From Pseudomonadota bacterium (GTDB taxonomy: Bacteria; Pseudomonadota; Gammaproteobacteria; Burkholderiales; Burkholderiaceae_C): a DNA stretch of 48,139 bases. The notes beneath the pieces are model-generated. The model had not been told where the DNA came from. It ran no database searches and saw only the letters and a list, made by a program, of their open reading frames with translations. The number at the start of each line of letters is the position of its first letter. Within the stretch, counting starts at the first letter, position 1. Where the stretch lies: assembly GCA_018242005.1 (NCBI GenBank), contig JAFECU010000294.1, forward strand, positions 1-48,139. The letters run 5' to 3'. Made by a program: the position numbers and the translations under genes. Below, in pieces: positions 31,720 to 46,664 of this stretch.

Positions 31720-32700
31720 TCAGGGCATGACCGTGGCGCCACCCCATGCACAGGCCGACGGGCCAAAAAATTCTTGCAGAAATTCCACGCACACCCGTAC
31801 CTTGGCGGAGCGTTCCAGCGGCGTAGGGTAGACGGCCCAGATGTTGGCCTCCTGGCGCCATTCGGGCAGAACCTGCACCAAGCGCCCCGCCTCCAGGTGC
31901 GCTCCCACATCCCATAGTGAGCGCAACGCGATGCCGCGCCCATGTACGGCCCACTGCACCACCATTTCGCCGTTATTGGCCGACAGCGGCCCTGTGACCT
32001 TCACCGTCTCTTCCTGCACACCCGAGCGCAGGCGCCACACGCCAAATGGATGGTCGCGCTCCTTGATCACAAGGCAGTCGTGCCCGGGCAGATCGGCCGG
32101 GCTGCGCGGTGCTCCGCGGCGCACCAGGTAGTCCGGCGCGGCGCAAAGCACGCGGTGGTTGTCGGCCAGGCGCCGCGCGATCAGATGCGGCGCGATCTCG
32201 TCGCCCACGCGCACATCCAGATCGAAGCCCTCGCCCGCCACGTCCACGAGTCGGTCGAACACCTCCAATCGCACCTGCAGGCCCGGGTGTCGCTCCACCA
32301 GCTTCGAGAGCACAGGTGCGACCACGTTGCGCCCAAAGCCGAAGCTGCTGGAGACGCGCAGCAGCCCCTGCGGCTCGCGGCGCGTGACGGCCACCTCCTG
32401 CAAGAGCTGATCCATGTCGTCGAGAATGCGCTGCGCCCAGTGGAACACGCGCTCGCCCTGGTCGGTCACGGCCACACGGCGCGTGGTGCGGTGCAACAGC
32501 GGCACGCCCAGCTCCTGCTCCAGCAGCCGGATGCGCTTGCTCACATAGGCGGGCGAAACTGACAGCGCCTGCGCCGCCGCGGCAAAGCCGGCCTTGCGCA
32601 CCACGGTGCAGAAGACGCGCAAATCGTCGGTAGGCGGGATTTTATGCACGATGTGTGAACAGTAGAACCACAGAAGCGCGCATTGTATGAATCCCGTCAT
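31720..32700 (-). CDS. LysR-family transcriptional regulator (DmlR-like position)
   Basis: This up to 326-residue regulator has the N-terminal helix-turn-helix DLRVFCTVVRKAGFAAAAQA followed by SVSPAYVSKRIRLLEQEL, and a C-terminal effector domain. An alternative GTG start at 32649 (VHKIPPTDDLRVF) removes 17 hydrophobic-looking residues and leaves a normal LysR N-terminus and a 92-base intergenic promoter region; I consider it at least as likely. It is divergent from the tartrate/D-malate dehydrogenase gene, as dmlR is from dmlA in E. coli, so it probably activates that gene. Confidence 0.9.
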   Translation of the reverse strand: MTGFIQCALLWFYCSHIVHKIPPTDDLRVFCTVVRKAGFAAAAQALSVSPAYVSKRIRLLEQELGVPLLHRTTRRVAVTDQGERVFHWAQRILDDMDQLLQEVAVTRREPQGLLRVSSSFGFGRNVVAPVLSKLVERHPGLQVRLEVFDRLVDVAGEGFDLDVRVGDEIAPHLIARRLADNHRVLCAAPDYLVRRGAPRSPADLPGHDCLVIKERDHPFGVWRLRSGVQEETVKVTGPLSANNGEMVVQWAVHGRGIALRSLWDVGAHLEAGRLVQVLPEWRQEANIWAVYPTPLERSAKVRVCVEFLQEFFGPSACAWGGATVMP

Positions 32701-32716
32701 CAGTGAACAATGACGG
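32694..32716. promoter_or_regulatory. Inverted repeat in the LysR/dehydrogenase intergenic region
   Basis: CCGTCAT (32694-32700) and ATGACGG (32710-32716) form a perfect 7-bp inverted repeat spaced by nine bases. GTGAACA inside the spacer is repeated in direct orientation at 32655-32661. Position between divergent genes suggests an operator for the LysR regulator; a role as operator is inference. Confidence 0.45.
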
Positions 32717-32741
32717 CCATCACATCCCGGAGAACCACCGC

Positions 32742-33830
32742 ATGCAAACCGCTTACAAGATCGCAGTCCTGCCCGGCGACGGCATTGGCCGTGAAGTCAT
32801 GCCCGAGGGCCTGCGCGCCGTCGAGGCCGCGGCCCGGCGCTTTGGCCTGGCGCTCGACTTCCACCATTTCGACTGGGCGCACTGCGACTACTACCAACAG
32901 CACGGCAAGATGATGCCCGACGACTGGAAGGCGCAATTGCAGGGCATGGACGCCATCTACTACGGCGCCGTGGGCTGGCCGGCCACCGTGCCCGACCATG
33001 TGTCGCTCTGGGGGTCGCTGCTCAAGTTCCGGCGCGAGTTCGATCAGTACATCAACCTGCGCCCCGTGCGCCTGTTCGAAGGCGTGCCCTGCCCGCTGGC
33101 CGGCCGCAAGCCCGGCGACATCGACTACTACGTGGTGCGCGAGAACACCGAGGGCGAATACACCTCGCTCGGCGGCATCATGTACGAGGGCACGGACCGC
33201 GAGATCGTGATCCAGGAATCGGTCTACTCGCGCCACGGCGCCAACCGCCTGCTCAGGTTCGCCTTCGACCTGGCCCAAAGGCGCGCGAAGAAGCATGTGA
33301 CCCTGGCCACCAAGAGCAACGGCATCGCCATCAGCATGCCCTGGTGGGACCAGCGCGCCGAGGAGGTCGCCAAACAATACCCCGACGTGGCGCTGGACAA
33401 GCAGCACATCGACATCCTCACGGCGCGCTTCGTGCTGCAGCCCGGGCGCTTCGACGTGGTGGCGGCCACCAACCTGTTTGGCGACATCCTCTCCGACCTG
33501 GGGCCCGCCACCACAGGCACCATCGGCCTGGCGCCCTCGGCCAACCTCAACCCCGAGCGCAGCTTCCCCAGCCTGTTCGAGCCCGTGCACGGCTCGGCGC
33601 CCGACATCTATGGCAAGAACATCGCCAACCCCATCGCCATGATCTGGTCCGGCGCGCTGATGCTGGACTTCCTGACCCGGGGCCAGGGCGCGGGCCGTCA
33701 GGCGCATGACGCCATCGTCGCGGCCATCGAGGAGGTCATCAAGAGCGGCCCGCGCACGCCCGACCTGGGTGGGTCGGCCAACACCACGCAGGTGGGCGAA
33801 GCCATAGCGGGCGCGATTGCCAGGGCTTGA
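32742..33830 (+). CDS. Tartrate/D-malate dehydrogenase (decarboxylating), TtuC/DmlA type
   Basis: This 362-residue enzyme is an NAD-dependent beta-decarboxylating dehydrogenase of the isocitrate/isopropylmalate family. Visible landmarks: KIAVLPGDGIGREVMPEGL at the N-terminus, LRPVRLFEGV, VRENTEGEYTSLGG, and the substrate/metal segment FGDILSDLGPATTGTIGLAPSAN and EPVHGSAPDIYGKNIANP. The NTEGEYT pattern and lack of isopropylmalate residues fit tartrate dehydrogenase/D-malate dehydrogenase. GGAG (32729-32732) precedes ATG 32742. It is controlled in all likelihood by the divergent LysR gene. Confidence 0.93.
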   Translation: MQTAYKIAVLPGDGIGREVMPEGLRAVEAAARRFGLALDFHHFDWAHCDYYQQHGKMMPDDWKAQLQGMDAIYYGAVGWPATVPDHVSLWGSLLKFRREFDQYINLRPVRLFEGVPCPLAGRKPGDIDYYVVRENTEGEYTSLGGIMYEGTDREIVIQESVYSRHGANRLLRFAFDLAQRRAKKHVTLATKSNGIAISMPWWDQRAEEVAKQYPDVALDKQHIDILTARFVLQPGRFDVVAATNLFGDILSDLGPATTGTIGLAPSANLNPERSFPSLFEPVHGSAPDIYGKNIANPIAMIWSGALMLDFLTRGQGAGRQAHDAIVAAIEEVIKSGPRTPDLGGSANTTQVGEAIAGAIARA

Positions 33831-34111: not shown

Positions 34112-35167
34112 ATGAATGCAGGATCTCATGGCATGCGCATGGCTGCCTTTTTACGCCCTTTGGTTTATCTGGGCCTGGCCGGCCTGGCCGCATGCGCCAA
34201 CAGCCCCGCAGGCAAGGCCACCGCGCCAGCGGCAGAGGCCGCCGCAGCGCCGGCACCCACACCAATCAAGATCGGCATTGCCCTGGGCGGCGGCGCGGCC
34301 AAGGGTTTTGCGCACATCGGCGTGATCAAGATGCTGGAGGCCAATGGCCTGGCGCCCTCGGTCGTGGCGGGCACGAGCGCGGGCAGCGTGGTCGGCGCGC
34401 TGTATGCGAGCGGCATGAATGCCTTCGAATTGCAGGAAAAGGCCGTGGCCCTGGACGAGGGCCGGATACGAGACCTCCAGCTGTCCTCGGGCGGCCTAGT
34501 GCAGGGCCGCAAGCTGGAGGACTATGTCAACGCCCAGGTACACGGCAAGCCATTGGAACAGCTGGCCAAGCCCTTCGTGGCCGTGGCAACAAGGCTGGAA
34601 GATGGCGAGCGCACCGTGTTCGCGCGCGGCAACACGGGCCAGGCGGTGCGCGCGTCAAGCAGCATTCCCGGTGTGTTCCAGCCTGTGGCCATTGGCAAAT
34701 TCCACTTCGTCGACGGCGGCATCGTCAGCCCCGTGCCCGTGGACGCGGCGCGCCAGCTGGGTGCGGATGTGGTCATCGCCGTGGACATCTCCAACAAGGC
34801 GCGCGGCAAGTCGCCGGAACACATGCTCGGCGCACTGAACCAGTCCATCGCCATCATGGGCCAGAAGCTCGGTCAGGCCGAGCTAGCGCGCGCCGACGTG
34901 GTCATTCGCCCGCAGGTGTTGGACATCGGCCCGGTTGACTTCAACCAGCGCGCCAGCGCCATCATGGAGGGCGAGAAGGCGGCGCTGGCCGCCATGCCTC
35001 AAATACGTGCGCGCATCACCCAGTTGCAGGCCGAGCGCGCGCAAACCACGCGCGTCGCACAACAAAAAATCCTCGAGGCCCAGCATCAGGACTGCCTGGA
35101 CAAACGCTCACGGCTTCATAAGCTGGCCGGACTGGCGGGCCTGGACGACTCCTGCGCCTTGCCCTGA
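34112..35167 (+). CDS. Patatin-like phospholipase lipoprotein (RssA-like)
   Basis: This 351-residue protein has an N-terminal lipoprotein signal with lipobox LAAC (Cys28), so it is expected to be membrane-anchored. The patatin domain shows the oxyanion loop LGGGAAKGFAH, the nucleophile Ser89 in GTSAG and the dyad Asp201 in VDGG. Such proteins hydrolyse acyl groups from phospholipids. The C-terminal ~60 residues are a charged helical tail (RARITQLQAERAQTTRVAQQ). Several in-frame ATGs (34112, 34133, 34139) are possible starts. The gene stands alone. Confidence 0.9.
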   Translation: MNAGSHGMRMAAFLRPLVYLGLAGLAACANSPAGKATAPAAEAAAAPAPTPIKIGIALGGGAAKGFAHIGVIKMLEANGLAPSVVAGTSAGSVVGALYASGMNAFELQEKAVALDEGRIRDLQLSSGGLVQGRKLEDYVNAQVHGKPLEQLAKPFVAVATRLEDGERTVFARGNTGQAVRASSSIPGVFQPVAIGKFHFVDGGIVSPVPVDAARQLGADVVIAVDISNKARGKSPEHMLGALNQSIAIMGQKLGQAELARADVVIRPQVLDIGPVDFNQRASAIMEGEKAALAAMPQIRARITQLQAERAQTTRVAQQKILEAQHQDCLDKRSRLHKLAGLAGLDDSCALP

Positions 35168-35863: not shown

Positions 35864-36802
35864 CTACCGCCGAAGAGTCTTCACCCCCTCGCGCAGGCAT
35901 TCGACGAGCAGAGCCGTCACCGGGGTCAGGCGCTGCCCGCGCAGCGTGATCAGGCCCACGGGCGGCAACTCAATGCGCACCGCCAGGCCGAGCTGCTCCA
36001 GAATGCCGTGCTGCGCAAAATGCCGCGCCACGGTACGTGCCATGAAGGCCACGGCGCCGCGCTGGTGCATGAAGCTCAGTTGCGAGAGGAACGAAGCCGA
36101 CTCGACGATGTCTACCGGCGGGTGCAGGTCGTGGGCAAAAAACTGCTGCTCCAGTTTGACGCGCAGCGAGGCCCAGGGCGGCGGCAGCACGCAGGGCTGC
36201 TCGGCAAGGTCGGCCCACTTCACGGTGCGCCGGCGCGCGAGTGGGTGGCCGGGGCGCACCACGGCCGCCATGGGGTCTTCGTACAACGGCTCGGTCTGCA
36301 GGTCCGGGGCCGCGTAAGCGGGCTCCAGACGGCCCAGAAACAGGTCCAGCTCGCCCAGGCGCAGCTTGGGCAACAGGTGCGCCAGATCTCCCTCCTCGAT
36401 GAGCACGGTGGCACGGCGCGAGCAAGCCTTGAGCCTCTCCACGGCCTGCGCCAGCAGCACCGGCGTGGCCGACACCATGGCGCCCACGCTGGCGCGGCCG
36501 CTGGCACCGCTGGCCTCGGCGGCGATCTCGTCGCGCGTGCGCTCGTAGCCGGCGAGCACCGAGCGCGCGAAGCGCACCACGCTGGCGCCGGCCGCCGTGG
36601 GCTCGGTGCCGCGCGTGGAGCGCTCGAACAGCGGCAGGCCGAACATGGACTCGATCTCGGCCAACGTCTTGGACACAGCAGGCTGCGTCAGCGCCAGGAA
36701 TTCCGCCGCCCGCCCCAGGTGGCGAAACTGGTCCAGTGCCACCAGCATTTGCAGGTGGCGCAGCTTGAGATTGCTGCGCAGCACGCGGTCTATCTGTGCC
36801 AT
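35864..36802 (-). CDS. LysR-family transcriptional regulator of the sugar-acid operon
   Basis: This 312-residue regulator has the helix-turn-helix KLRHLQMLVALDQFRHLGRA followed by LALTQPAVSKTLAEIES, and a type-2 periplasmic-binding-like effector domain. It is of the PcaQ/GbpR kind, which begins with NLKLRHLQ and often controls aromatic or sugar acid operons. An AAGGAAAG site precedes ATG 36802. It is divergent from the eight-gene catabolic run starting at 36947, which it most likely activates in response to a pathway intermediate. Confidence 0.92.
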   Translation of the reverse strand: MAQIDRVLRSNLKLRHLQMLVALDQFRHLGRAAEFLALTQPAVSKTLAEIESMFGLPLFERSTRGTEPTAAGASVVRFARSVLAGYERTRDEIAAEASGASGRASVGAMVSATPVLLAQAVERLKACSRRATVLIEEGDLAHLLPKLRLGELDLFLGRLEPAYAAPDLQTEPLYEDPMAAVVRPGHPLARRRTVKWADLAEQPCVLPPPWASLRVKLEQQFFAHDLHPPVDIVESASFLSQLSFMHQRGAVAFMARTVARHFAQHGILEQLGLAVRIELPPVGLITLRGQRLTPVTALLVECLREGVKTLRR

Positions 36803-36946
36803 GGACTTCTTTCCTTGTCGTTCGTCAAGTACATAAGCGTTTTGCAATGAAGACAGTCAGTATTTTCATTGGATTGTTATGCCGCGTCACCGAACAATGC
36901 GAGCCGACTGAACACCTTGGCCGCACCTCAACAACTGGAGACATAC
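36803..36946. promoter_or_regulatory. Divergent promoter region of LysR gene and catabolic operon
   Basis: The 144-base gap is AT-richer than its surroundings (around TAAGCGTTTTGCAATGAAG and CAGTATTTTCATTGGATTG). CATAA at 36832-36836 and TTATG at 36877-36881 form a widely spaced inverted pair. This is the expected site for LysR binding and both promoters; exact boxes cannot be fixed by eye. Confidence 0.35.
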
Positions 36947-37936
36947 ATGCAGAACCCACGCAGTGGACGCCGTCAATTCGTCCTTGGCACGCTTGGTGCC
37001 GCCGCACTTGCCACCGGCCCCACCCGCCTGTTCGCCCAGGCCTGGCCCGAGCGCCCCATCACCTTCATCTGCCCCTGGCCCGCCGGCGGCACGGCCGACC
37101 AGTCGATGCGCGCGCTGTGCACCGTGGCGGGCCGCGTGCTGGGCCAGGCCATCGCGGTGGAGAACCGTGCCGGCGCCTCGGGCATGATCGGCGCCAAGGC
37201 CCTGGCATCGGCCAAAGCCGACGGGTACACCATTGGCCAGATCCCGATTTCGGTCACGCGCTTCTCGCAGTTGGGCACGCTGGCCGCTGATCCGCGCAAG
37301 GACTTCAGCTACATCGCGCGCACCTCAGGCCAGACCTTTGGCATTGCGGTGCCAACCGGCTCGCCGTTCAAGACGCTGCAGGACCTGGTAGCCGCAGCAA
37401 AGGCCAAGCCCGGGCAGGTGACCTATGTCCATGCGGGAGTGGGCGGCGCCACCCATGTGGGCATGGAGGAGTTCGCCATGGCCGCGGGCATTCAGCTCAA
37501 CCATGTGCCCTACAAGGGCGGCGCCGAGGCGCTGCAGGGGGTGCTGGGCGGCCATGTGGATGCGCTTGCGGATTCGAGTTCCTGGGCCCCGCATGTCGAG
37601 GCCGGCAAGCTGCGCCTGTTGGCTACCTGGGGCGAGCAGCGCACGGCCCGCTTCAAGGACACGCCCACGCTCAAGGACCTGGGCTACAACGTGGTGGTCG
37701 ATGCCCCCAACGGCATCGGCGCGCCCAAGGGCCTGGACCCGGCGGTATTGGCCAAACTGCGCGATGCCTTTCGCCAGGCCGTGGCCAGCCCGGAATTCAA
37801 GGCCGTGGCCGACAAGCTGGACGCGCCCGTGCTCTACCTGGACGGCCCCGACTATGAACAGTACGTGAACGCCGTCTACCAGAAAGAGACCGTTCTCATC
37901 GACAGGCTCAAGCTGCGCGAGCTGATGAAAGGTTGA
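36947..37936 (+). CDS. Bug/TctC-family substrate-binding protein, operon gene 1
   Basis: This 329-residue periplasmic receptor has a signal peptide with twin arginine (SGRRQFVLGTLGAAALATG), compatible with Tat export, then WPERPITFICPWPAGGTADQ. Family motifs VENRAGASG, NHVPYKGGAEAL and DTPTLKDLGY are present. GGAG (36937-36940) supports ATG 36947 over the longer frame. It is the first gene of the operon divergent from the LysR gene and is followed after two bases by the UxaA-type dehydratase, so its ligand is probably the sugar acid that enzyme uses. Confidence 0.92.
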   Translation: MQNPRSGRRQFVLGTLGAAALATGPTRLFAQAWPERPITFICPWPAGGTADQSMRALCTVAGRVLGQAIAVENRAGASGMIGAKALASAKADGYTIGQIPISVTRFSQLGTLAADPRKDFSYIARTSGQTFGIAVPTGSPFKTLQDLVAAAKAKPGQVTYVHAGVGGATHVGMEEFAMAAGIQLNHVPYKGGAEALQGVLGGHVDALADSSSWAPHVEAGKLRLLATWGEQRTARFKDTPTLKDLGYNVVVDAPNGIGAPKGLDPAVLAKLRDAFRQAVASPEFKAVADKLDAPVLYLDGPDYEQYVNAVYQKETVLIDRLKLRELMKG

Positions 37937-37938
37937 CC

Positions 37939-39477
37939 ATGCACCCCAATCCACTCCTGCTGCACCTGCACCCCAACGACAACGTGTACGTCGCCAAGAC
38001 GGCGCTGGCGCTGGGCCAGGAAATTCCCGAGCTGGGCGTGCGCACGCGCGCCCAGGTGCCGCCCGGGCACAAGATCGCCGCACGCCGCATCGCCGAGGGC
38101 GAGCAGGTCAGGAAGTACGACACCGTGATCGGCGTCGCCACGCGAGACCTGGAGCCGGGCGACTACGTGCACAGCCACAACCTGAAGATCGTGGACTACT
38201 ACCGCGACCCGGCCTTCGGCGCCGACGTGCGGCCCGTCGACTACGTACCCGAGGCCGAACGCGCCACCTTTCAGGGCTTTGTGCGCGCCGACGGCCGCGT
38301 GGGCACGCGCAACTTCATCGGCATCCTGTCATCGGTGAACTGCTCGGCCACCGTGATCCGGCATATCGCCGCGCATTTCACGCCCGAGCGGCTGGCGGCC
38401 TATCCCAACGTCGACGGCGTGGTGGCCTTTGCGCAGACCAGCGGCTGCGGCATGTCCTCGCCCAGCGAGCATTTCGACGTGCTGCGCCGCACGCTGGCCG
38501 GCTACGCACGCCACCCCAACCTGGCGGGGACGCTCATCGTGGGCCTGGGCTGCGAGCGCAACCAGGTCAGCGCGCTGGTGGAGTCGCAGGGCCTGAAGGA
38601 CGATCCGGCCAACGGGCGGCTGCTGCGCACCATGGTGATGCAGGAGGTGGGCGGCACGCGCGTCACCATCGAGGCCGGCATCCGGGCCATCGAGGAAATG
38701 CTGCCGATCGCCAACCAGGCGCAGCGCCAGCCCGTCAGTGCCAGCCATCTCAAGATCGGGCTGGAATGCGGCGGCTCGGACGGTTTCTCGGGCATCACCG
38801 CCAACCCGGCGCTGGGCGCGGCCATGGACATCCTGGTGCGCCACGGCGGCACGGCCATCCTGAGCGAGACGCCCGAGATTCACGGCGTGGAGTTCATGCT
38901 CACGCGCCGCGCCATCAGCCCCGCGGTGGGCCAGAAGCTGCTCGACCGCCTGGCCTGGTGGGAGCGGTACGCCAGCGGCCAGAACGCGCAGTTCAACGGC
39001 GTGGTGGGCCACGGCAACCAGGCCGGCGGCCTGGCCAACATCTTCGAGAAATCGCTGGGCAGCGCCATGAAGGGCGGCACCACGCCGCTGCGCGCGGTCT
39101 ATGAATACGCCGAGCCCATCACCGAGAGCGGCTTCGTCTTCATGGACTCGCCCGGCTACGACCCCGTGGCCACCACGGGCCAGATTGCCAGCGGTGCCAA
39201 CCTGGTCTGCTTCACCACCGGGCGCGGCTCCATGTTCGGCAGCAAGCCCGCACCCACGATCAAGCTGGCCACCAACACGCCCATGTACCAGCGCCTGACG
39301 GAAGACATGGACATCAACTGCGGCCTGATCGTGGACGGCGAATGCACCGTGCCCGAGATGGGCCAGCGCATCTTCGAGCAGATCCTGCGCCACGCCAGCG
39401 GCGAACCCACCAAGAGCGAGGCCCTGGGCCTGGGCGACAACGAATTCGTGCCCTGGCATATGGGCATCGTTAGCTAA
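37939..39477 (+). CDS. UxaA family sugar-acid dehydratase (altronate/galactarate dehydratase-like)
   Basis: This 512-residue protein joins an N-terminal SAF domain (residues ~8-85) and a UxaA/GarD catalytic domain (from ~100: GRVGTRNFIGILSSVNCSAT, QTSGCGMSSPSEHF, GLGCERNQV, GLECGGSDGFSGITANPALG, TGRGSMFGSKPAPTIKLATN, DINCG). These enzymes remove water from aldonic or aldaric acids, giving 2-keto-3-deoxy acids, and use iron through conserved cysteines. ATG 37939 has AAAGG at close spacing. Position next to an HpaI-type aldolase gene supports a 2-keto-3-deoxy acid product. The precise sugar acid is unknown. Confidence 0.92.
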   Translation: MHPNPLLLHLHPNDNVYVAKTALALGQEIPELGVRTRAQVPPGHKIAARRIAEGEQVRKYDTVIGVATRDLEPGDYVHSHNLKIVDYYRDPAFGADVRPVDYVPEAERATFQGFVRADGRVGTRNFIGILSSVNCSATVIRHIAAHFTPERLAAYPNVDGVVAFAQTSGCGMSSPSEHFDVLRRTLAGYARHPNLAGTLIVGLGCERNQVSALVESQGLKDDPANGRLLRTMVMQEVGGTRVTIEAGIRAIEEMLPIANQAQRQPVSASHLKIGLECGGSDGFSGITANPALGAAMDILVRHGGTAILSETPEIHGVEFMLTRRAISPAVGQKLLDRLAWWERYASGQNAQFNGVVGHGNQAGGLANIFEKSLGSAMKGGTTPLRAVYEYAEPITESGFVFMDSPGYDPVATTGQIASGANLVCFTTGRGSMFGSKPAPTIKLATNTPMYQRLTEDMDINCGLIVDGECTVPEMGQRIFEQILRHASGEPTKSEALGLGDNEFVPWHMGIVS

Positions 39478-39533
39478 AACCATAGCTGCCGCCGCTTAAC
39501 CAGAGAGCGCTACAGCCCCAATTGACTTAAAGC
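39476..39533 (+). repeat. Short interspersed repeat (ATAGCTG…GCGCTT family) at uxaA-like 3' end
   Basis: Starting in the stop codon of the dehydratase gene, AAAACCATAGCTGCCGCCGC then TTAACCAGAGAGCGCTACAG and CCCCAATTGACTTAAA fill the whole 57-base gap up to the aldehyde dehydrogenase start. This is the most complete intergenic copy in the window and can be aligned with those at 7460 and 23361. Confidence 0.7.
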
Positions 39534-39534
39534 C

Positions 39535-41004
39535 ATGCCTCTGACCCTGACCCGCCCCGAGCTGATCCGCAGCGCCAACTTCATCAGCGGCGCCTGGACC
39601 ACCACACCCACCGCACGCCTGGCTGTGACCGATCCGGCCACCGGCGATGTCATCACCCACGTTCCCGACAGCGGAGCAGCGGAAGCCCGCGCAGCGCTCG
39701 ACGCCGCCCACGCCGCCTTCCCCGCCTGGCGCAAGCTGCCGGCCAGACAGCGCGCGGCCATCATCAAGCGCTGGAACGATCTGGTGCTGCAGCACCAGGA
39801 CGACCTGGGCAAGCTGATCTCCCGCGAGCAGGGCAAGCCTCTGGCCGAGGGCCGCGGCGAGGTGGCCTACGCCGCCAGCTATATCGAATGGTTTGGCGAA
39901 GAGGCCACGCGCGTGAACGGCGAGATCATCCCCGCGCCCATGCCGGGCCGGCGCATGTTCGCGCTCAAGGAACCCGTGGGCGTGGTGGCCGCCATCACGC
40001 CCTGGAACTTTCCCGCCGCCATGATCGCGCGCAAGATCGCGCCGGCCCTGGCCGCCGGCTGCACCGTGGTCTGCAAGCCCGCCGAGGACACGCCGCTGAC
40101 CTCGCTGGCCCTGGTGTTGCTGGCGCAGGAGGCCGGCGTGCCGGCCGGCGTGCTCAACATCGTTACTGCCTCACGCGAGAAGACGCCCGAGGTGGTGGAC
40201 GTGTGGCTCGATGACGGCCGCGTGCGCAAGATCACCTTCACCGGCTCCACGCCCGTCGGCAAGCACCTGGCGCGGCGCAGCGCCGACACGCTGAAAAAGC
40301 TCTCGCTCGAGCTCGGCGGCAACGCACCCTTCATCGTGTTCGACGATGCCGACGTGGATGCCGCCGTCGAGGGTTTCATGGCCGCCAAGTTCCGCAACGG
40401 CGGCCAGACCTGCGTCTGCCCCAACCGCGTGTTCGTGCAGCGCGGCGTGTTCGACGCGTTCGCGCACAAGCTCGCCGCGCGCGTGGCGGCGCTGACAGTG
40501 GGCCCCGCAAGCAACCCGGCCTCGCAGATCGGCCCCATGATCAATGACCGCGCGGTCGAGAAGATCGAGCGCCATGTGCGGGACGCCATCGCCAAGGGAG
40601 CCAAGGTGCTCACCGGTGGTCAGCGCCTGCCCGAACTCGGCCCCACCTACTTTGCGCCCACCGTGCTCACCGGCGCCGACCCCACGATGGCCTGTGCCTG
40701 CGAGGAGACCTTCGGCCCCGTCGCGCCGCTCACCGTGTTCGACGACGAAACGGCGGTGATCCAGGCGGCCAACGACACGCCCTTCGGCCTGGCCGCCTAC
40801 TTCTACAGCCGGGACGTGCGCCGCATCTGGCGCGTGGCCGAGCAGCTCGAGACCGGCATCGTCGGCATCAACGAGGGCGCCATCTCGTCCGAGGCCGCGC
40901 CCTTTGGCGGCGTGAAGGAGTCGGGCTACGGGCGCGAGGGATCGACGCACGGCCTCGACGATTACCTGCACACCAAGTATGTGTGCCAGGGACAGCTGGA
41001 TTGA
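39535..41004 (+). CDS. Aldehyde dehydrogenase, succinate-semialdehyde dehydrogenase type
   Basis: This 489-residue NAD(P)-dependent enzyme has the oxyanion Asn158 (PWNFP), the general base Glu259 (ELGGNAPF) and catalytic Cys293 in NGGQTCVC. The context FRNGGQTCVCPNR and the C-terminal PFGGVKESGYGREG are typical of GabD-like semialdehyde dehydrogenases. In this operon it probably oxidises the aldehyde released by the HpaI-type aldolase (for example a semialdehyde, glycolaldehyde or lactaldehyde). The gap to the dehydratase gene contains a repeat element and no clear Shine-Dalgarno site. Confidence 0.93.
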   Translation: MPLTLTRPELIRSANFISGAWTTTPTARLAVTDPATGDVITHVPDSGAAEARAALDAAHAAFPAWRKLPARQRAAIIKRWNDLVLQHQDDLGKLISREQGKPLAEGRGEVAYAASYIEWFGEEATRVNGEIIPAPMPGRRMFALKEPVGVVAAITPWNFPAAMIARKIAPALAAGCTVVCKPAEDTPLTSLALVLLAQEAGVPAGVLNIVTASREKTPEVVDVWLDDGRVRKITFTGSTPVGKHLARRSADTLKKLSLELGGNAPFIVFDDADVDAAVEGFMAAKFRNGGQTCVCPNRVFVQRGVFDAFAHKLAARVAALTVGPASNPASQIGPMINDRAVEKIERHVRDAIAKGAKVLTGGQRLPELGPTYFAPTVLTGADPTMACACEETFGPVAPLTVFDDETAVIQAANDTPFGLAAYFYSRDVRRIWRVAEQLETGIVGINEGAISSEAAPFGGVKESGYGREGSTHGLDDYLHTKYVCQGQLD

Positions 41005-41041
41005 ACCAGCGAGTTCACACAAAAAATTCACAAGGAGACAC

Positions 41042-42037
41042 ATGATGACCAACCCCCACCACCTCGCGCGCAGGCCCCTGCTGGCCGCGCTGGCAACGCT
41101 GGCCCTGGCCGGCGCCATACCGTCGGCCCTGGCCCAGGGCAGCTTTCCGAGCAAGCCCATCACCTTCGTCGTCCCCTACCCCGCGGGTGGCGCCAACGAC
41201 ATGCTGGGGCGCATGATCGGGCAGAAGATGGGTGATGCCTTGGGCGCGGCCAGCATCGTGGACAACCGGCCCGGCGCCGGGGCTCTGCTGGGCGCGGGCA
41301 TCGTGGCGCGTGCGCCGGCCGACGGCTACACCCTGCTGGTCGGCGGCCTGGCCACGCACGCCGCCAGCCCGCACCTGATCAAGGCCGACTATGACCCGCT
41401 CAAGGACTTCGAGCCCATAGGCATGATAGGCCGCGCACCCATCATCGCCATCACCTACCACGACTCACCCTACAAGTCGCTCAAGGACGTGGTGGAGGCC
41501 GCGCGCAAGGACCCGCAGGGTGTGATGTACGGGTCGTCCGGCAACGGCTCGCCGCTGCACCTGGCGGGTGAGCTGTTCGTGTCCATCGCCAAGGTCCAGA
41601 TGACGCATGTGCCCTACAAGGGCGGTAACGCGCACATCATCGACCTGATAGGCGGGCGCGTGCCGATCATCTTCGACACCGCCACCAACTCCATGCCGCT
41701 GCTGCGCGGCGGCAAGGTGCGCGCTCTGGCCGTGGGCGCGCCCGCACGACTGCCCGAACTGCCCAACGTGCCAACCTTCGCCGAGGCCGGCTACCCGCAG
41801 TTCGAGTTCTCGGCCTGGTACGCGCTGTTCGCCCCTGCCAGGACACCCACGGACGTGAGCGCCAAGCTCTCGGCCGCGTTGGCCATGACCCTGAAGCTGC
41901 CCGACGTGGCAACCAAGCTGCGCGACCTGGGCGTGACCCCAGGCAGCGGCGACGCGGGCGAACTGCGCGCCTTCCTGCCCGGCGAGTACCAACGTGTCGG
42001 CGATCTGATCAAGGCCGCCAAGATCAAAGCAGATTGA
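41042..42037 (+). CDS. Bug/TctC-family substrate-binding protein, operon gene 4
   Basis: This 331-residue receptor has a signal peptide (ending PSALA-QG, about residue 32) and the motifs KPITFVVPYPAGGANDMLGR, VDNRPGAGALLG, THVPYKGGNAHI and NVPTFAEAGYP. AAGGAG at 41032-41037 serves ATG 41042 or 41045. It differs clearly from the two other Bug proteins of the run, which suggests a separate ligand or role. No membrane subunit follows; the next gene, 10 nt on, is the sialidase-like protein. Confidence 0.92.
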   Translation: MMTNPHHLARRPLLAALATLALAGAIPSALAQGSFPSKPITFVVPYPAGGANDMLGRMIGQKMGDALGAASIVDNRPGAGALLGAGIVARAPADGYTLLVGGLATHAASPHLIKADYDPLKDFEPIGMIGRAPIIAITYHDSPYKSLKDVVEAARKDPQGVMYGSSGNGSPLHLAGELFVSIAKVQMTHVPYKGGNAHIIDLIGGRVPIIFDTATNSMPLLRGGKVRALAVGAPARLPELPNVPTFAEAGYPQFEFSAWYALFAPARTPTDVSAKLSAALAMTLKLPDVATKLRDLGVTPGSGDAGELRAFLPGEYQRVGDLIKAAKIKAD

Positions 42038-42047
42038 GGAGAAGCAC

Positions 42048-43202
42048 ATGCCCGATGGACTGCTGCGCCCCCACCCCGAAGACCCGGCACTTGAAGTGGC
42101 CGACCTGCCCTCGGCCTGCGTCCAGGCCCATGCCGCCAACCTGATGGAACTGGGCGATGGCACCCTGGCCTGCGTCTGGTTTGGCGGGTCCATGGAAGGC
42201 CGCTCCGACATCTCGGTCTACATGTCACGCCTGGCGCCCGGCGCGCGCCAGTGGTCGGCGCCCGTCCGGCTGTCGCACGATGCCGAACGCTCGGAGCAGA
42301 ATCCCGTACTGTTTCCTGCGCCCGACGACACGCTGTGGCTGCTGCACACGGCGCAGACTTCGGGCCACCAGGACAGTTCGGTTGTGCGTCGGCGCCTTTC
42401 GCGCGACCATGGCACGAGCTGGGGGCCCACCGAGACGCTGGCCGATGCCCCCGCCGGCACCTTTGTGCGCCAGCCCATCCATGTGCACAGCGACGGCAGC
42501 TGGCTGCTGCCGGTGTTCCACTGCCGCGCGCTGCCCGGCCAAGCCTGGGACGGCAGCCATGACGACAGCGGTGTGCTGCGCTCCACAACCGAAGGCCGCA
42601 GCTGGCAGCGCATCGCCGTGCCCGGCAGCCTGGGCTGCGTGCACATGAACATCGTGCCCGCGTCCGACGGCGGCCTGCTGGCCTTCTACCGCAGCCGCTG
42701 GGCCGACCATGTCTACCGCAGCCGCAGCGACGACGGCGGCCTGAGCTGGCAGGCGCCCGAGCCCACGCAGCTGCCGAACAACAACTCGTCCATACAGGCG
42801 CTGCGCCTGGCCGACGGCCGCCTGGCCATGATCTTCAACGCCAGCAGCGCTGCCAATGCCACGGAGCGGCGCGAATCGCTGTATGACGAGCTGGGCGACG
42901 CCTCGGCAACGCCCGCAATGGCTTCGACCTCCGAGCGCCGTGCGTTCTGGGGAGCTCCCCGGGCTCCGATGACGCTGGCACTGTCGGCCGACGACGGCCT
43001 GAGCTGGCCCTGGCAGCGCAACCTGGAGGTGGGCGACGGCTGGTGCATGAGCAACGACTCCGAGCACGGCCGCAATCGCGAGTATTCCTACCCCTCCATC
43101 CGCCAGGGAGCCGACGGCACCCTGCACCTGGCCTATACGGTGTTCCGTCAGCATATCCGCCATGTGCGCGTGCAGCCGGACTGGGTGAGCGCACAAGCAT
43201 GA
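42048..43202 (+). CDS. BNR-repeat 'sialidase family' protein, no signal peptide
   Basis: This 384-residue protein is a predicted six-bladed beta-propeller. Asp-box-like repeats are visible: SRDHGTSWGP, STTEGRSWQR, SDDGGLSWQA and SADDGLSWPW. The N-terminal CVWFGGSMEGRSDISVY is shared with proteins annotated as exo-alpha-sialidases, but the FRIP motif of true sialidases is not seen and no signal peptide is present, so it is cytosolic. It may be a hydrolase, lyase or isomerase acting on a glycosidic or lactone substrate in this pathway. Its stop overlaps the next start (ATGA). GAGGAG precedes the start. Confidence 0.82.
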   Translation: MPDGLLRPHPEDPALEVADLPSACVQAHAANLMELGDGTLACVWFGGSMEGRSDISVYMSRLAPGARQWSAPVRLSHDAERSEQNPVLFPAPDDTLWLLHTAQTSGHQDSSVVRRRLSRDHGTSWGPTETLADAPAGTFVRQPIHVHSDGSWLLPVFHCRALPGQAWDGSHDDSGVLRSTTEGRSWQRIAVPGSLGCVHMNIVPASDGGLLAFYRSRWADHVYRSRSDDGGLSWQAPEPTQLPNNNSSIQALRLADGRLAMIFNASSAANATERRESLYDELGDASATPAMASTSERRAFWGAPRAPMTLALSADDGLSWPWQRNLEVGDGWCMSNDSEHGRNREYSYPSIRQGADGTLHLAYTVFRQHIRHVRVQPDWVSAQA

Positions 43203-44164
43203 CGGCTCACAACGCACCGCAATTTCACGTCCTCGTCACCGCCGAGCACTGGGCCTCAGAGGCGCAGACCCTGGTGCAGGCCGCCGGCGGACATGTCCAT
43301 TTCATGTTCGAACCCATCAACGAGGACAGTCTGGCACAGCGACTCGCGCAGACCGGCGCCCAGGCCCTGGTGCTGCGCGGCTCCAAGCCCGTGACGGCGC
43401 GCGTGCTGCAAGCCGCGCCGGCGCTGCGCATCGTCGCCAAGAACGGCGCCGGCGTGGACAGCGTGGATCTGGATGCGGCCCGCGCGCAAGGCGTCTGCGT
43501 GGCCGTGGCGCTGGCCGCCAACGCCCCGGCGGTGGCCGAGCATGCGCTGGCGCTGATGCTGGCCCTGGTGCGCCAGCTGCCACAGCTCGACGCCCAGGTG
43601 CGCGCCGGCGGCTGGGCCGGCAGCGGCTGGCAGGGGCGCGACTTCCGCGGCTCCACGGTGGGCATCGTGGGCTACGGCGCCATAGGCCGCGCCACGGCCC
43701 AACTGGCCGCGGCCCTGGGTGCAAGGGTGCTGGTGCTGCGCCCGGCCGGCCAGGCCGACGGCTTCGACTGCGAACCGGATCTGCACCGGCTGCTGCCTCA
43801 GCTGGACATATTGAGCCTGCACTGCCCCTTGAGTGAGCGCACGCGCGGACTCATCGGCGCGCGCGAGCTGGCCCTCCTGCGCCCAGGCAGTCTGCTGGTC
43901 AACACCGCGCGCGGCCCTGTCGTCGATGAGTCCGCACTGCTGGCGGCCCTGCAAGGCGGCCACCTGGGCGGCGCCGGGCTCGACACCTTCGACAGCGAAC
44001 CGCTGCCCCAGGGACACCCGTTCACGCGGCTGCCGCAGGTGATATTGACCCCGCATGTGGCCGGCGTGACGCGCCAGGCCGCGCTGCGCGTGGCAACCCT
44101 CACGGCCACCAACATCGTTGACCATCTGGCCGGCAAACCCCTGCCGACCGGCCATCGGCTCTGA
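43199..44164 (+). CDS. D-2-hydroxyacid dehydrogenase (phosphoglycerate dehydrogenase-like)
   Basis: This 321-residue NAD(P)-dependent enzyme has the Rossmann motif GYGAIG (residues 158-163) and the catalytic set Arg238 (NTARGP), Glu267 (DSEP) and His286 (TPHVAG). It reduces a 2-keto acid such as hydroxypyruvate or glyoxylate, or oxidises the matching hydroxy acid. ATG 43199 overlaps the stop of the BNR gene by four bases; the upstream extension of the frame is not coding. With the aldolase gene 7 nt downstream, it probably handles a pathway product. Confidence 0.93.
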
Positions 44165-44171
44165 AACATCC

Positions 44172-44975
44172 ATGCCCGCACACAATCCCTTCAAGACCGC
44201 CCTGGCCGCGCGCCAGCCTCGGATAGGCCTGTGGCTGTCCATGGCCGACCCCTACCTGGCCGAGACAGCCGCCACCTGCGGCTATGACTGGCTGCTCATC
44301 GACAACGAGCATGCGCCCAACGACCTGCGCAGCACGCTGGCCGCGCTTCAGGCCGTGGCAGCTCACCCCACCCAGCCCGTGGTACGCGTGGTGGAGGGCA
44401 GCACGGCGCTCATCAAGCAGATGCTGGACATAGGCGCCAAGACCCTGCTCGTGCCCATGGTCGACACCGCAGGTCAGGCCCGCGCCATCGTGGCCGCCAC
44501 CCAATACCCACCCCGGGGCGTGCGCGGCGTGGGCAGCGCCACGGGCCGCGCTTCGCAGTGGAGCAGCCGCGCCGACTACCTGAGTGTGGCCGATGACGAG
44601 GTCTGCCTGCTGGTGCAGGCCGAGACCACCACGGCCCTGGCCAACCTGGCTGCCATCTGTGCCGTGGAGGGCGTGCACGGTGTGTTCATAGGCCCGGCAG
44701 ACCTGGCCGCATCGATGGGCCACCGCGGCAACCCCGGCCACCCGGACGTGCAAGCCGCCATCGAGAGCGCCATGCGCACCATCGTCGCCAGCGGCAAGGC
44801 CGCGGGCACGCTGACCTCGGACCCGGCGCTCGCGCGGCGCTATCTCGATCTGGGCTGCACCTTCGTGGCCGTGGGTGTGGACCTGCTGCTGTTCACCCAG
44901 GCGGCGCGCAGGCGGCGCGGCGAGATCGGCGCCACGCCCGCGACCGAGGCAGCGCCACCGAGCGCCGCGTACTGA
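44172..44975 (+). CDS. HpaI/HpcH-family aldolase (2-keto-3-deoxy acid aldolase)
   Basis: This 267-residue class II aldolase resembles 4-hydroxy-2-oxoheptanedioate aldolase. His47 (DNEHAPND), Arg72, and the metal ligands Glu151 (QAETT) and Asp177 ([11 protein letters not shown]) match E. coli HpaI (His45, Arg70, Glu149, Asp175) with a constant two-residue offset. Such enzymes split 2-keto-3-deoxy acids to pyruvate and an aldehyde. In this operon the substrate is probably the product of the UxaA-type dehydratase, and the aldehyde would go to the dehydrogenase encoded at 39535. Confidence 0.93.
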
Positions 44976-44999
44976 AACCAACCCAAGGAGACATAGACC

Positions 45000-45977
45000 A
45001 TGAATAAGCGACGATTCCGCATGGGGATGGCCCTGTGCCTGGGCGCCTTCACGCTCGCCATCGCCCTGCCCGCGGCGGCCCAGGAGCCCAAGCCCCTGGT
45101 GAAGATCGTGGTGCCGTTCAACCCGGGCGGCGGGTCGGACCTGTTCGCGCGCCTGCTCGCGCCGGGTCTGTCCGAGGCACTCAAGGTTTCGGTGATCGTG
45201 GAGAACCGCGCCGGCGCAGGCGGCGTGATCGGCACGGACTACGTGGCCAAGTCCAAGCCCGACGGCGACACGCTGCTGCTGTCCGACGCTTCGGCCTATG
45301 CGATCAACCCGCACCTGTACCCGAATCTGCCCTACAAGGCCAGCCAGCTCCAGCCGGTGGCGGACATCGCCCGCTTCGCCAACCTGCTGGTCGTGCCCGC
45401 AAACACGCCCTACGCCAGCCTGGCCGACATCACGCGTGCGGCAAAACAAGAGCCGGGCAGGCTCAGCATCGCCTCCTCGGGCAACGGCAGCAGCACCCAC
45501 CTCACGGCGGTGATGATGCAGCGCCTGGGGCAGTTCTCTCTCACCCATGTGCCCTACAAGGGCAGCGGACCGGCATTCACCGACCTCATCAGCGGCCAGG
45601 TGAACATGATGTTCAGCGGCCTGCCGGCCGTATCGGAATACCTCAAGGGCCAGCGGCTCAAGGCGGTGGCAATCGCCTCGGCCAGGCGCTCGCCCTTCGC
45701 GCCCGAGGTGCCGACCATGGCCGAGGCGGGCTTGCCCGGGTTCGAGTCCTTCATCTCCCAGGGCCTGTTCGCGCCGGCGGGCACGCCACCGGAGACGGTC
45801 GCCAGGATCAACACCGCGGTGAACCAGGTCCTCTGCTCGCCCGAAATGGCGACCCGCCTGGCCCAGGTCAAGGCCGAGTTTCAGCCCAACAGCGCGGCCG
45901 AATACCAGAAGTGGCTCAACGCGCAGTCGGACACCTGGGCGAGGCTGATCAGGGAAGCGGCCATCAGGATCGACTGA
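45000..45977 (+). CDS. Bug/TctC-family substrate-binding protein, operon gene 8
   Basis: This 325-residue receptor has a signal peptide (residues ~1-27, ending ALPAAA-QE) and the motifs VKIVVPFNPGGGSDLFARLL, VENRAGAGGVIGTDYV, THVPYKGSGPAF and EVPTMAEAGLPGF. AAGGAG (44985-44990) precedes ATG 45000. It is the third Bug gene of the run and probably the last gene of the operon; the methyltransferase gene 54 nt further is functionally unrelated. Confidence 0.92.
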   Translation: MNKRRFRMGMALCLGAFTLAIALPAAAQEPKPLVKIVVPFNPGGGSDLFARLLAPGLSEALKVSVIVENRAGAGGVIGTDYVAKSKPDGDTLLLSDASAYAINPHLYPNLPYKASQLQPVADIARFANLLVVPANTPYASLADITRAAKQEPGRLSIASSGNGSSTHLTAVMMQRLGQFSLTHVPYKGSGPAFTDLISGQVNMMFSGLPAVSEYLKGQRLKAVAIASARRSPFAPEVPTMAEAGLPGFESFISQGLFAPAGTPPETVARINTAVNQVLCSPEMATRLAQVKAEFQPNSAAEYQKWLNAQSDTWARLIREAAIRID

Positions 45978-46031
45978 TGGCAAGGACGGCGCCGGTGGAG
46001 GAATAATCGAGCGGTGCATGCTCCAACGCCC

Positions 46032-46664
46032 ATGACCGCCCCACAGACACCCAACCGGCGGGCCGACCTGCCCTTCTCCCAGGCCTGCGAGAACAACCAG
46101 TCCCCCATCCTGGCCGTGCTCGCGCAAGCCTTTGCCGATCGACGCCATGTGCTGGAGATCGGCTCGGGCACGGGCCAGCATGGCGTGCATTTCGCGCCGT
46201 GCCTGCCGCACCTGGTCTGGCAGACCAGCGACCTGGCCGCGAACCACGCCGCCATCAACGCCTGGCAGGCCGCGTATCCAGCACCCAACCTGCGCGCTCC
46301 GCTGCTGCTGGACCTGACCAGCAGCGACTGGCCCGATGGCGCGTTTGACGCCGTGTTCTCCGCCAACACCGCGCACATCATGGCCTGGCCGCTGGTAGTG
46401 CGGCTGTTCGCGATGGCAGGCAGCCACCTGCCCGAGGGCGGCGTGCTGGCGCTGTACGGCCCGTTCAACTACGGCGGCACGTTCACCAGCGACAGCAACC
46501 GCGCCTTCGACGCCTGGCTGCGCGCGCGTGACCCGGCGAGCGGCATACGCCACTTCGAGGACATCGCGACGCTGGCGGCCACACATGGCCTGGTGCTGGC
46601 ACACGACCACGCCATGCCGGCCAACAACCGGCTGCTGGTATTTCGCCGCATGGCCATGACATGA
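46032..46664 (+). CDS. DUF938 SAM-dependent methyltransferase-like protein
   Basis: This 210-residue protein begins LPFSQACENNQSPILAVLAQ and has the SAM-binding motif I VLEIGSGTGQHGVHFA, then LLLDLTSSDWPDGAFDAVFS and GPFNYGGTFTSDSNRAFD, the pattern of DUF938. It is likely a small-molecule methyltransferase of unknown substrate. I choose ATG 46032; the frame can also start at GTG 46014. It lies between the catabolic run and murI and has no visible link to either. Confidence 0.88.
   Translation: MTAPQTPNRRADLPFSQACENNQSPILAVLAQAFADRRHVLEIGSGTGQHGVHFAPCLPHLVWQTSDLAANHAAINAWQAAYPAPNLRAPLLLDLTSSDWPDGAFDAVFSANTAHIMAWPLVVRLFAMAGSHLPEGGVLALYGPFNYGGTFTSDSNRAFDAWLRARDPASGIRHFEDIATLAATHGLVLAHDHAMPANNRLLVFRRMAMT

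What the first reader, a model, noticed from the sequence alone, without database searches (positions are those of the whole stretch)
36803..45977. Candidate undescribed sugar-acid/glycoside catabolic operon with three Bug receptors and a cytosolic BNR propeller
Seen: LysR divergent from eight tightly spaced genes (Bug, UxaA-type dehydratase, semialdehyde dehydrogenase, Bug, BNR protein, D-2-hydroxyacid dehydrogenase, HpaI-type aldolase, Bug), with gaps of 2-57 nt and one ATGA overlap. Known: UxaA-type enzymes yield 2-keto-3-deoxy acids; HpaI-type enzymes split such acids to pyruvate plus an aldehyde. Inference: a dehydrate-cleave-oxidise route for an aldonic/aldaric acid, with the BNR protein releasing or rearranging the substrate. 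I know no characterised pathway with this exact gene set.
Basis: partly seen in the sequence, partly recalled or inferred. Interest (0 to 1): 0.75.

Follow-up and report, generated by a model that had tools for sequence, protein, structure and literature searches.

The report
Composite sugar-acid operon with sialidase-fold enzyme
A common bacterial gene set that probably splits a sugar acid has here been joined to a cytosolic enzyme shaped like a sialidase, and related gene clusters, including one in the probiotic E. coli Nissle, suggest it may feed on a rare acid of plant pectin.

The parts
35864..36802 (-). LysR-type regulator, divergent; part of the core module
   Evidence: Pfam HTH_1 and LysR_substrate; best NCBIfam PcaQ, 199.7 bits, below its cut-off of 303.8; a LysR homologue at 65% or more upstream of UxaA in 17 of 20 UxaA loci
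36947..37936 (+). Bug1, TctC-type periplasmic receptor (core module)
   Evidence: PF03401 E 3.5e-70; at 68% identity or more in 18 of 20 UxaA loci
37939..39477 (+). UxaA/GarD-like one-chain dehydratase (SAF + GD_AH), core module
   Evidence: PF20629, PF04295, PF08666; TIGR03248 368.7 bits against cut-off 730.85; nearest solved structure GarD 6u7l, E 1.9e-89
39535..41004 (+). succinate-semialdehyde-dehydrogenase-type ALDH, core module
   Evidence: TIGR01780 (subfamily) 668.9 bits, cut-off 646.35; the stricter equivalog NF008415 630.6 bits, below its cut-off of 828; the best solved chains are mostly SSADHs
41042..42037 (+). Bug2, TctC-type receptor that travels with the BNR gene
   Evidence: PF03401; a Bug2 homologue at 55% or more within 8 kb of the BNR in 16 of 78 BNR loci
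42048..43202 (+). BNR_2 protein: cytosolic sialidase-fold enzyme, probable handler of a 2-ulosonic-type acid
43199..44164 (+). D-2-hydroxyacid dehydrogenase, travels with the BNR in the UxaA variant
   Evidence: PF02826/PF00389; best NCBIfam PGDH 233.2 bits, cut-off 454; also in L162 and L168, which show no BNR
44172..44975 (+). HpaI-type pyruvate aldolase, core module
   Evidence: TIGR02311 HpaI 364.2 bits (cut-off 368.8), above its scores to the YfaU and GarL models; nearest solved 7v8t, 2,4-dihydroxyhept-2-ene-1,7-dioate aldolase, E 1.7e-103
45000..45977 (+). Bug3, accessory TctC-type receptor
   Evidence: PF03401; 81% homologue after HpaI in L162, which shows no BNR
32703..33830 (+). tartrate dehydrogenase, 3 kb upstream; probable functional companion (its start may lie downstream of 32703)
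   Evidence: TIGR02089 528.5 bits, cut-off 470.4; only one of 4 matches over that cut-off in the held genome; abuts the core module in L168, L175, L177, L178
31720..32700 (-). LysR regulator divergent from the tartrate dehydrogenase
   Evidence: best NCBIfam TtdR NF007315 355.5 bits, below cut-off 398

Best explanation
The operon is a composite catabolic unit. Core module: UxaA-like dehydratase, HpaI-type aldolase and SSADH-type dehydrogenase, with a tartrate dehydrogenase nearby. It splits a seven-carbon 2-keto-3-deoxy diacid into pyruvate and a C4 semialdehyde, oxidises the latter to a tartrate (C4 diacid) and passes it to central metabolism. Into this module Bug2-BNR-DHDH was inserted, from a stock otherwise linked to a DUF1537-kinase/PdxA route. 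The BNR protein is a cytosolic enzyme with the GH33 sialidase fold that probably acts on a 2-ulosonic-type acid (ketoside hydrolysis, or ring opening/anomer exchange) so that the open-chain keto acid reaches the aldolase. In relatives the same step feeds a DHDPS- or HpaI-type aldolase, and the C4 semialdehyde is reduced by an Fe-ADH to D-threonate, phosphorylated (DtnK) and oxidatively decarboxylated (PdxA2) to dihydroxyacetone phosphate. The known natural sugar that fits best is DHA of pectin rhamnogalacturonan II; worked by hand, its D-lyxo configuration gives D-threuronate, hence D-threonate on reduction or D-(-)-tartrate on oxidation. Shown: gene content, order, composite make-up, predicted fold. 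Inferred: every reaction and the substrate. DHDH would reduce a 2-keto acid such as hydroxypyruvate made from tartrate (weakest step). Confidence is for the C7-to-pyruvate-plus-C4 scheme; DHA itself is about 0.28.
Against: No substrate or activity was measured. 8 of 78 BNR loci show no aldolase within 8 kb (L001, L011, L020, L031, L033, L044, L063, L108) and 10 of 78 no C4 exit; Pantoea L031, L033 and L044 show only SSS-BNR-YhcH-SDR. The enterobacterial DHDPS-type protein scores best to dapA (Nissle 189.7 vs cut-off 206.15; L023 196), better than to the lyase models, and its nearest solved chains are dihydrodipicolinate synthases, so its role as a sugar-acid lyase is inferred from context. The nearest relative (G142 = L001) lacks the HpaI orthologue; its best HpaI elsewhere is 56% identical. 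D-threonate specificity rests on enterobacterial proteins only: the DUF1537 protein of L018 matched no NCBIfam model at 1e-25, those of L061 and L110 are far below cut-off, and those beside the BNR in G168 and G314 score 43.6 and 42.1 bits against 450. The loci are phylogenetically uneven (many Enterobacterales, some near-duplicates). The UxaA core exists without BNR, so its own substrate need not be the BNR's. P. putida tartrate dehydrogenase is recalled to use (+)- and meso-tartrate and D-malate, not (-)-tartrate, which fits D-tartrate poorly. The SDR that goes with BNR in 53 of 78 loci has no orthologue in the held genome (best-scoring match 36%).
Confidence: 0.42

Rival explanations
1. The core acts on an ordinary C6 aldarate (galactarate/glucarate type): UxaA dehydrates it to 5-keto-4-deoxyglucarate, HpaI cleaves this to pyruvate and tartronate semialdehyde, and the ALDH or DHDH disposes of the C3 aldehyde. 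The BNR liberates or rearranges the hexarate.
For: UxaA's nearest solved relative is galactarate dehydratase, HpaI also matches the GarL model (263.3 bits), and the DHDH matches hydroxypyruvate/glyoxylate reductase models among others.
Against: UxaA scores 368.7 against a GarD cut-off of 730.85; HpaI scores 364.2 to HpaI and 263.3 to GarL. No tartronate semialdehyde reductase or glycerate kinase is in the operon (the genome was not searched for them). A C3 product does not explain an SSADH-type enzyme, the tartrate dehydrogenase or the DUF1537+PdxA genes of relatives.
Confidence: 0.2
2. Sulfosugar-type route: HpaI cleaves 2-keto-3-deoxy-6-sulfogluconate, the SSADH-type enzyme oxidises sulfolactaldehyde and the UxaA-like protein is a sulfolactate sulfo-lyase.
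For: Recalled: sulfo-Entner-Doudoroff gene sets use an SSADH-like sulfolactaldehyde dehydrogenase, and SuyAB are UxaA relatives. The start of an abstract in a search listing (PMC12421959) describes a sulfofucolytic/sulfolactate sulfolyase pathway.
Against: UxaA here is one chain nearest GarD, the ALDH passes the SSADH subfamily cut-off and is far below the sulfoacetaldehyde dehydrogenase model (297.9 vs 700), tartrate dehydrogenase or threonate kinase would have no role, and no sulfite-handling gene is in the operon (the genome was not searched for one).
Confidence: 0.06
3. The BNR insert serves a separate pathway that merely shares a transcript with the UxaA module: Bug2-BNR-DHDH acts on its own substrate and the two halves do not share an intermediate.
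For: None of the 20 UxaA loci fetched for comparison shows BNR, and G068 and G194 carry a UxaA homologue and a BNR on different contigs.
Against: Seven taxa (window, L001-L006) keep the BNR inside the module; L007 and L011 have their own UxaA+DHDH+BNR arrangements. In its other contexts the BNR is usually beside a pyruvate-aldolase-family gene, as here.
Confidence: 0.22
4. The BNR/PdxA/DUF1537 clusters serve pyridoxal-phosphate metabolism rather than carbon catabolism.
For: PMC12928451 (passages read) interprets the PdxA2/DUF1537 pair of its E. coli strain this way, citing Thiaville et al. 2016 (not held, not read).
Against: Nissle's PdxA passes the D-threonate 4-phosphate dehydrogenase cut-off at 681.6 bits, the clusters carry transporters and pyruvate-aldolase-family genes, and one search lists no PdxA or DUF1537 hit near the BNR in L001-L007 or L011.
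Confidence: 0.05

Closest known systems
D-threonate catabolism by DtnK and PdxA2 (recalled: Zhang et al. 2016)
   Same: The Nissle BNR cluster carries a kinase and a PdxA above the D-threonate cut-offs; the Kosakonia kinase too
   Different: These clusters add a DHDPS-type protein, Fe-ADH, BNR and often SDR and YhcH genes; the window has no DtnK/PdxA and exits by SSADH/UxaA/tartrate dehydrogenase
Sialic acid catabolism (sialidase, NanQ anomerase, NanA lyase)
   Same: Sialidase-fold protein, YhcH/NanQ-type protein and a DHDPS/NanA-family protein in one cluster in Enterobacterales
   Different: Cytosolic BNR with an altered active site; C4-acid exit in place of ManNAc kinase and epimerase; DHDPS-type and YhcH proteins below the nanA and NanQ cut-offs
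Galactarate pathway (GarD, GarL, GarR)
   Same: UxaA/GarD-like dehydratase plus HpaI/GarL-family aldolase
   Different: GarD and GarL cut-offs not met; SSADH-type oxidation and tartrate dehydrogenase instead of a reductase
4-hydroxyphenylacetate meta-cleavage tail (HpaI then SSADH)
   Same: C7 2-keto-4-hydroxy diacid to pyruvate plus a C4 semialdehyde to a C4 diacid (pathway recalled)
   Different: No other hpa gene in the operon; joined to a UxaA-like dehydratase and Bug receptors
GH143 DHA hydrolase domain of Bacteroides BT1020 (PDB 5mqr; family and activity recalled)
   Same: BNR region 216-267 aligns with chain 277-329 of 5mqr (E 0.38)
   Different: Only a weak partial match; BT1020 is a secreted two-domain enzyme (recalled); relation not established

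Membership tests
GH33 sialidase | sialidase beta-propeller fold | tested here: met
GH33 sialidase | Asp-box repeats | tested here: met
   SRDHGTSW, SDDGGLSW and SADDGLSW in the sequence; PF02012 listed for 34 of 34 homologues at E up to 1, below gathering score for the window protein
GH33 sialidase | Glu that activates the nucleophilic Tyr | tested here: not met
   profile alignment places H199, invariant in 34, on the NanC Glu (catalytic role recalled)
GH33 sialidase | Arg triad | tested here: inconclusive
   R215 aligns with a NanC Arg and R305 with an M. viridifaciens Arg; the first Arg appears to be H28 by reading the two first strands together (inference); no coordinates to superpose
GH33 sialidase | nucleophilic Tyr | tested here: inconclusive
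   Y348 invariant in 34 and aligned to a Tyr of 9eob, in a weak segment
GH143 DHA hydrolase | homology to the BT1020 catalytic propeller | tested here: inconclusive
   phmmer E 0.38 over 52 residues; profile E 0.17
Galactarate dehydratase (TIGR03248) | curated equivalog score | tested here: not met
   368.7 bits, cut-off 730.85
HpaI (TIGR02311) | curated equivalog score | tested here: not met
   364.2 bits, cut-off 368.8, narrowly below; still the best of four models
Succinate-semialdehyde dehydrogenase (TIGR01780, subfamily) | curated score | tested here: met
   668.9 bits, cut-off 646.35; the equivalog NF008415 is not met, 630.6 vs 828
Tartrate dehydrogenase (TIGR02089), window 32703-33830 | curated equivalog score | tested here: met
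   528.5 bits, cut-off 470.4; the second model NF006048 is not met, 458.9 vs 501
D-threonate (DtnK/PdxA2) pathway, in the window's genome | DtnK over its curated cut-off | tested here: not met
   best in G000 127.5 bits, cut-off 450; the genome is 91% complete
D-threonate (DtnK/PdxA2) pathway, in the E. coli Nissle relative | DtnK and PdxA2 over cut-off | tested here: met
   533.4 vs 450 and 681.6 vs 583
N-acetylneuraminate lyase / anomerase, for the Nissle DHDPS-type and YhcH proteins | curated nanA and NanQ scores | tested here: not met
   nanA 110.4 vs 382, PRK04147 144.7 vs 281, anomerase 90.5 vs 160; the DHDPS-type protein scores best to dapA, 189.7 vs 206.15
DHA catabolism | growth on, or cleavage of, DHA | not testable with these tools
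   needs purified DHA

The most novel reading that the evidence does not exclude
The BNR clusters are the catabolic pathway for DHA, the RG-II sugar acid: a sialidase-fold enzyme and (in enterics) a NanQ-type anomerase deliver open-chain DHA to an HpaI- or DHDPS-type lyase. The D-threuronate formed is reduced to D-threonate and sent through DtnK/PdxA2 (E. coli Nissle, Pectobacterium, Pantoea), or, in Comamonas-type bacteria, oxidised to tartrate by a captured UxaA-SSADH-HpaI-tartrate dehydrogenase module. This would give the DtnK/PdxA2 pathway a natural source of D-threonate.
Probability: 0.28. Interest if true: 0.8.

Novelty: new variant of a known kind. Interest (0 to 1): 0.55.

Why it matters
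If right, an uncharacterised protein family annotated 'sialidase' (a homologue is in 1043 of 5426 complete E. coli genomes) would be a metabolic enzyme for a plant-derived acid, which matters for gut cross-feeding and plant-associated bacteria, and would warn against reading these genes as host-sialic-acid enzymes. It also makes a testable proposal for where D-threonate comes from. Even without DHA, the operon shows an accessory set of genes inserted into a conserved catabolic module, perhaps at a shared intermediate.

Tried and rejected
Rejected or dropped: (1) one ancestral eight-gene pathway: the core module occurs without the BNR genes. (2) BNR as an ordinary sialidase: Glu replaced by His, no sialic-acid gene in the operon, no signal peptide by eye. 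(3) KDO as substrate: its aldol product is D-arabinose, C5 (recalled), which does not fit a C4 exit. (4) PLP synthesis: see rivals. (5) SDR as an obligatory partner: no orthologue in the held genome.

Led nowhere: paper searches for DHA catabolism (180 loose hits, 20 listed, 328 hits, 15 listed, 2 papers, one passage of each read, both only list DHA as a pectin component), for BT1020 (426 loose hits; the term occurs in none of the 12 listed), for D-threonate, DtnK and PdxA2 (3, 8 and 2 papers, listings only apart from PMC12928451), for sialidase with DUF1537 (1 paper, passages read), for sulfogluconate aldolase (0 papers) and for the Nissle cluster (2 papers, unrelated by their listing). N- and C-terminal sub-profiles against PDB gave only short weak alignments. 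5mqr is not among the 50 rows shown, which tells nothing either way.

Limits: the gene calls come from a crude home-made caller that missed genes (in one search, 14 of 81 loci were reported without a BNR gene although tblastn found one in each), so counts were taken from tblastn. In one search, 98 sequences were examined; 20 were dropped before counting because of short flanks, five listed duplicates or BNR identity under 45%. L040/L041 (one strain) and other near-duplicates remained. For one search I chose 20 of the 30 UxaA loci held; left out were the window and G142 (both known BNR carriers), G003 (internal stop), G182 and G174 (same genera as chosen ones) and the five weakest of the loci held, so 0 of 20 is not a rate of BNR linkage.
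Full report
OBSERVATION. LysR (35864-36802, minus) diverges from Bug1, a UxaA/GarD-like dehydratase, an SSADH-type dehydrogenase, Bug2, a BNR_2 protein, a D-2-hydroxyacid dehydrogenase (DHDH), an HpaI-type aldolase and Bug3. The BNR has no signal peptide by eye and overlaps DHDH by ATGA. DUF938 and murI follow closely.

CONSERVATION. A scan of named genomes with the BNR protein returned 371 relatives, of which the best 80 loci were kept. LysR< Bug1 UxaA SSADH Bug2 BNR DHDH HpaI recurs in that order in L002-L006 (5 of 80); L001 lacks HpaI; L007 and Sheuella L011 carry rearranged sets. BNR is patchy: 13 of 399 genomes of the family, the window's own included, at E 1e-40 or better, and 15 of 398 in a sample of the phylum at 1e-20, own included, of which 4 are only 29-33% identical.

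THE OPERON IS COMPOSITE. A UxaA search gave matches at E 1e-100 or better in 88 of 200 genomes of the family. I took 20 of the 30 loci held from it, leaving out the window and G142, which carry BNR, and eight others. Bug1, UxaA, SSADH and HpaI are all present in 14 of 20, tartrate dehydrogenase in 9 of 20, BNR in 0 of 20; several stretches end near the UxaA gene, so absences there mean little. A congener (L161) has LysR | Bug1 UxaA SSADH HpaI DUF938 murI with no Bug2, BNR, DHDH or Bug3 between. Tartrate dehydrogenase abuts the module in L168 and L178 (after HpaI), L175 (after SSADH) and L177 (before Bug1). In the window the tartrate dehydrogenase at 32703-33830 passes its cut-off and is the only gene of the held genome to do so. 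So the conserved unit is a dehydrate-cleave-oxidise module, and Bug2-BNR-DHDH (and Bug3) are additions. TctA-type transporter genes, the usual membrane partners of Bug receptors (recalled), are elsewhere in the genome, two over cut-off.

THE OTHER HOME OF THE BNR. Of 78 BNR loci with enough flank, 70 have an HpaI- or DHDPS-type gene within 8 kb, 58 DUF1537+PdxA, 54 an Fe-ADH, 53 an SDR (50% or more to my references), 40 a YhcH-type protein, 16 a close Bug2, 9 UxaA and 6 tartrate dehydrogenase. In E. coli Nissle the cluster lies between glnS and nagE: DeoR regulator, D-threonate 4-phosphate dehydrogenase, dtnK, Fe-ADH, DHDPS family protein, TerC, 'sialidase family protein', YhcH, SLC13 permease. 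A BNR homologue at 60-80% DNA identity is in 1043 of 5426 complete E. coli genomes. The Nissle DtnK and PdxA2 pass their curated cut-offs, while kinases of L018, L061 and L110 do not, nor do those beside the BNR in G168 and G314. PMC12928451 (passages read) noted a similar neighbourhood in Sinorhizobium meliloti and pathogenic E. coli and suggested pyridoxal phosphate synthesis.

HISTORY. In a maximum-likelihood tree of 35 BNR proteins the window-type sequences form one clade of 7 (99/93) inside a clade of 19 (100/99) that also holds 7 DtnK-type and 3 other rows. L007 and L011 form a second UxaA-linked pair, and one origin of the UxaA-linked arrangement is possible but weakly supported (37/89). 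The simplest reading is that a BNR-Bug2 pair left a kinase-type cluster and joined the UxaA module; the tree has no outgroup, so the direction is inference.

MECHANISM. Shown: two unrelated pyruvate-aldolase families replace each other beside one BNR family, and the remaining enzymes point to C4 acids by two routes. Inferred: the aldolase substrate is a 2-keto-3-deoxy acid of seven carbons, giving pyruvate and a C4 semialdehyde, reduced to D-threonate in kinase-type clusters and oxidised to a tartrate in the UxaA type. HpaI's nearest solved relatives act on a C7 2-keto diacid, the ALDH is SSADH-type, and the Fe-ADH matches 4-hydroxybutyrate dehydrogenase among other models, all below cut-off. 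Among the gene families I identified in kinase-type clusters there is no dehydratase, so their substrate should already be a 3-deoxy-2-keto acid. DHA is described as found in plants only in RG-II and as structurally related to sialic acid (PMC12168206, passages read). By hand, its retro-aldol products are pyruvate and D-threuronate, which reduces to D-threonate and oxidises to D-(-)-tartrate. That match with the D-threonate enzymes is the reason for naming DHA. The position of UxaA (before the aldolase, on a heptarate; or after SSADH, on tartrate) is not decided, and DHDH's role is a guess.

AGAINST. Clusters without aldolase or C4 exit exist (8 and 10 of 78). The enterobacterial DHDPS-type protein scores best to dapA, close to its cut-off, and its nearest solved chains are dihydrodipicolinate synthases. 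The closest relative lacks HpaI. D-threonate specificity is supported by models only in enterobacteria. P. putida tartrate dehydrogenase is recalled to prefer other tartrates. No activity data exist here. I recognised no paper on DHA catabolism in the listings of searches, which are capped lists of a library without most subscription papers.

VERDICT. It is a new arrangement of known enzyme kinds around an uncharacterised sialidase-fold enzyme, with a specific and testable substrate proposal.

Noticed in passing
window 31720-33830: TtdR-like LysR divergent from a tartrate dehydrogenase, with a patatin-like gene (34112-35167) between it and the operon; likely part of the same metabolic region.
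   Followed up: partly
L124 8143-8901; L027, L037, L039: A TerC-family membrane protein sits between the DHDPS and BNR genes in E. coli Nissle and Klebsiella clusters; its role in a catabolic operon is unexplained.
   Followed up: no
L001 / L121 (G142): The closest relative of the window operon shows no HpaI or Bug3 between DHDH and DUF938; its best HpaI homologue is 56% identical and elsewhere.
   Followed up: partly
L063 2947-8299: In Pantoea rwandensis the SSS-BNR-SDR genes adjoin a tartrate dehydrogenase/LysR pair and, by eye, an ABC sugar transporter and a GH28-like pectinase gene, a possible pectin link.
   Followed up: no
L031, L033, L044: Minimal Pantoea clusters SSS-BNR-YhcH-SDR beside a TonB receptor and periplasmic binding protein (names by eye), with no aldolase or kinase hit nearby.
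   Followed up: no
L055, L062, L065, L071, L073, L078: DUF1537 kinase and PdxA appear as one reading frame of about 780 aa (cluster c38) in Herbaspirillum, Trinickia, Paraburkholderia and Kibdelosporangium clusters.
   Followed up: no
window 46014-46664: DUF938 methyltransferase-like gene 36 nt after Bug3, followed by murI; the pair follows the core module in the congener L161 too.
   Followed up: no
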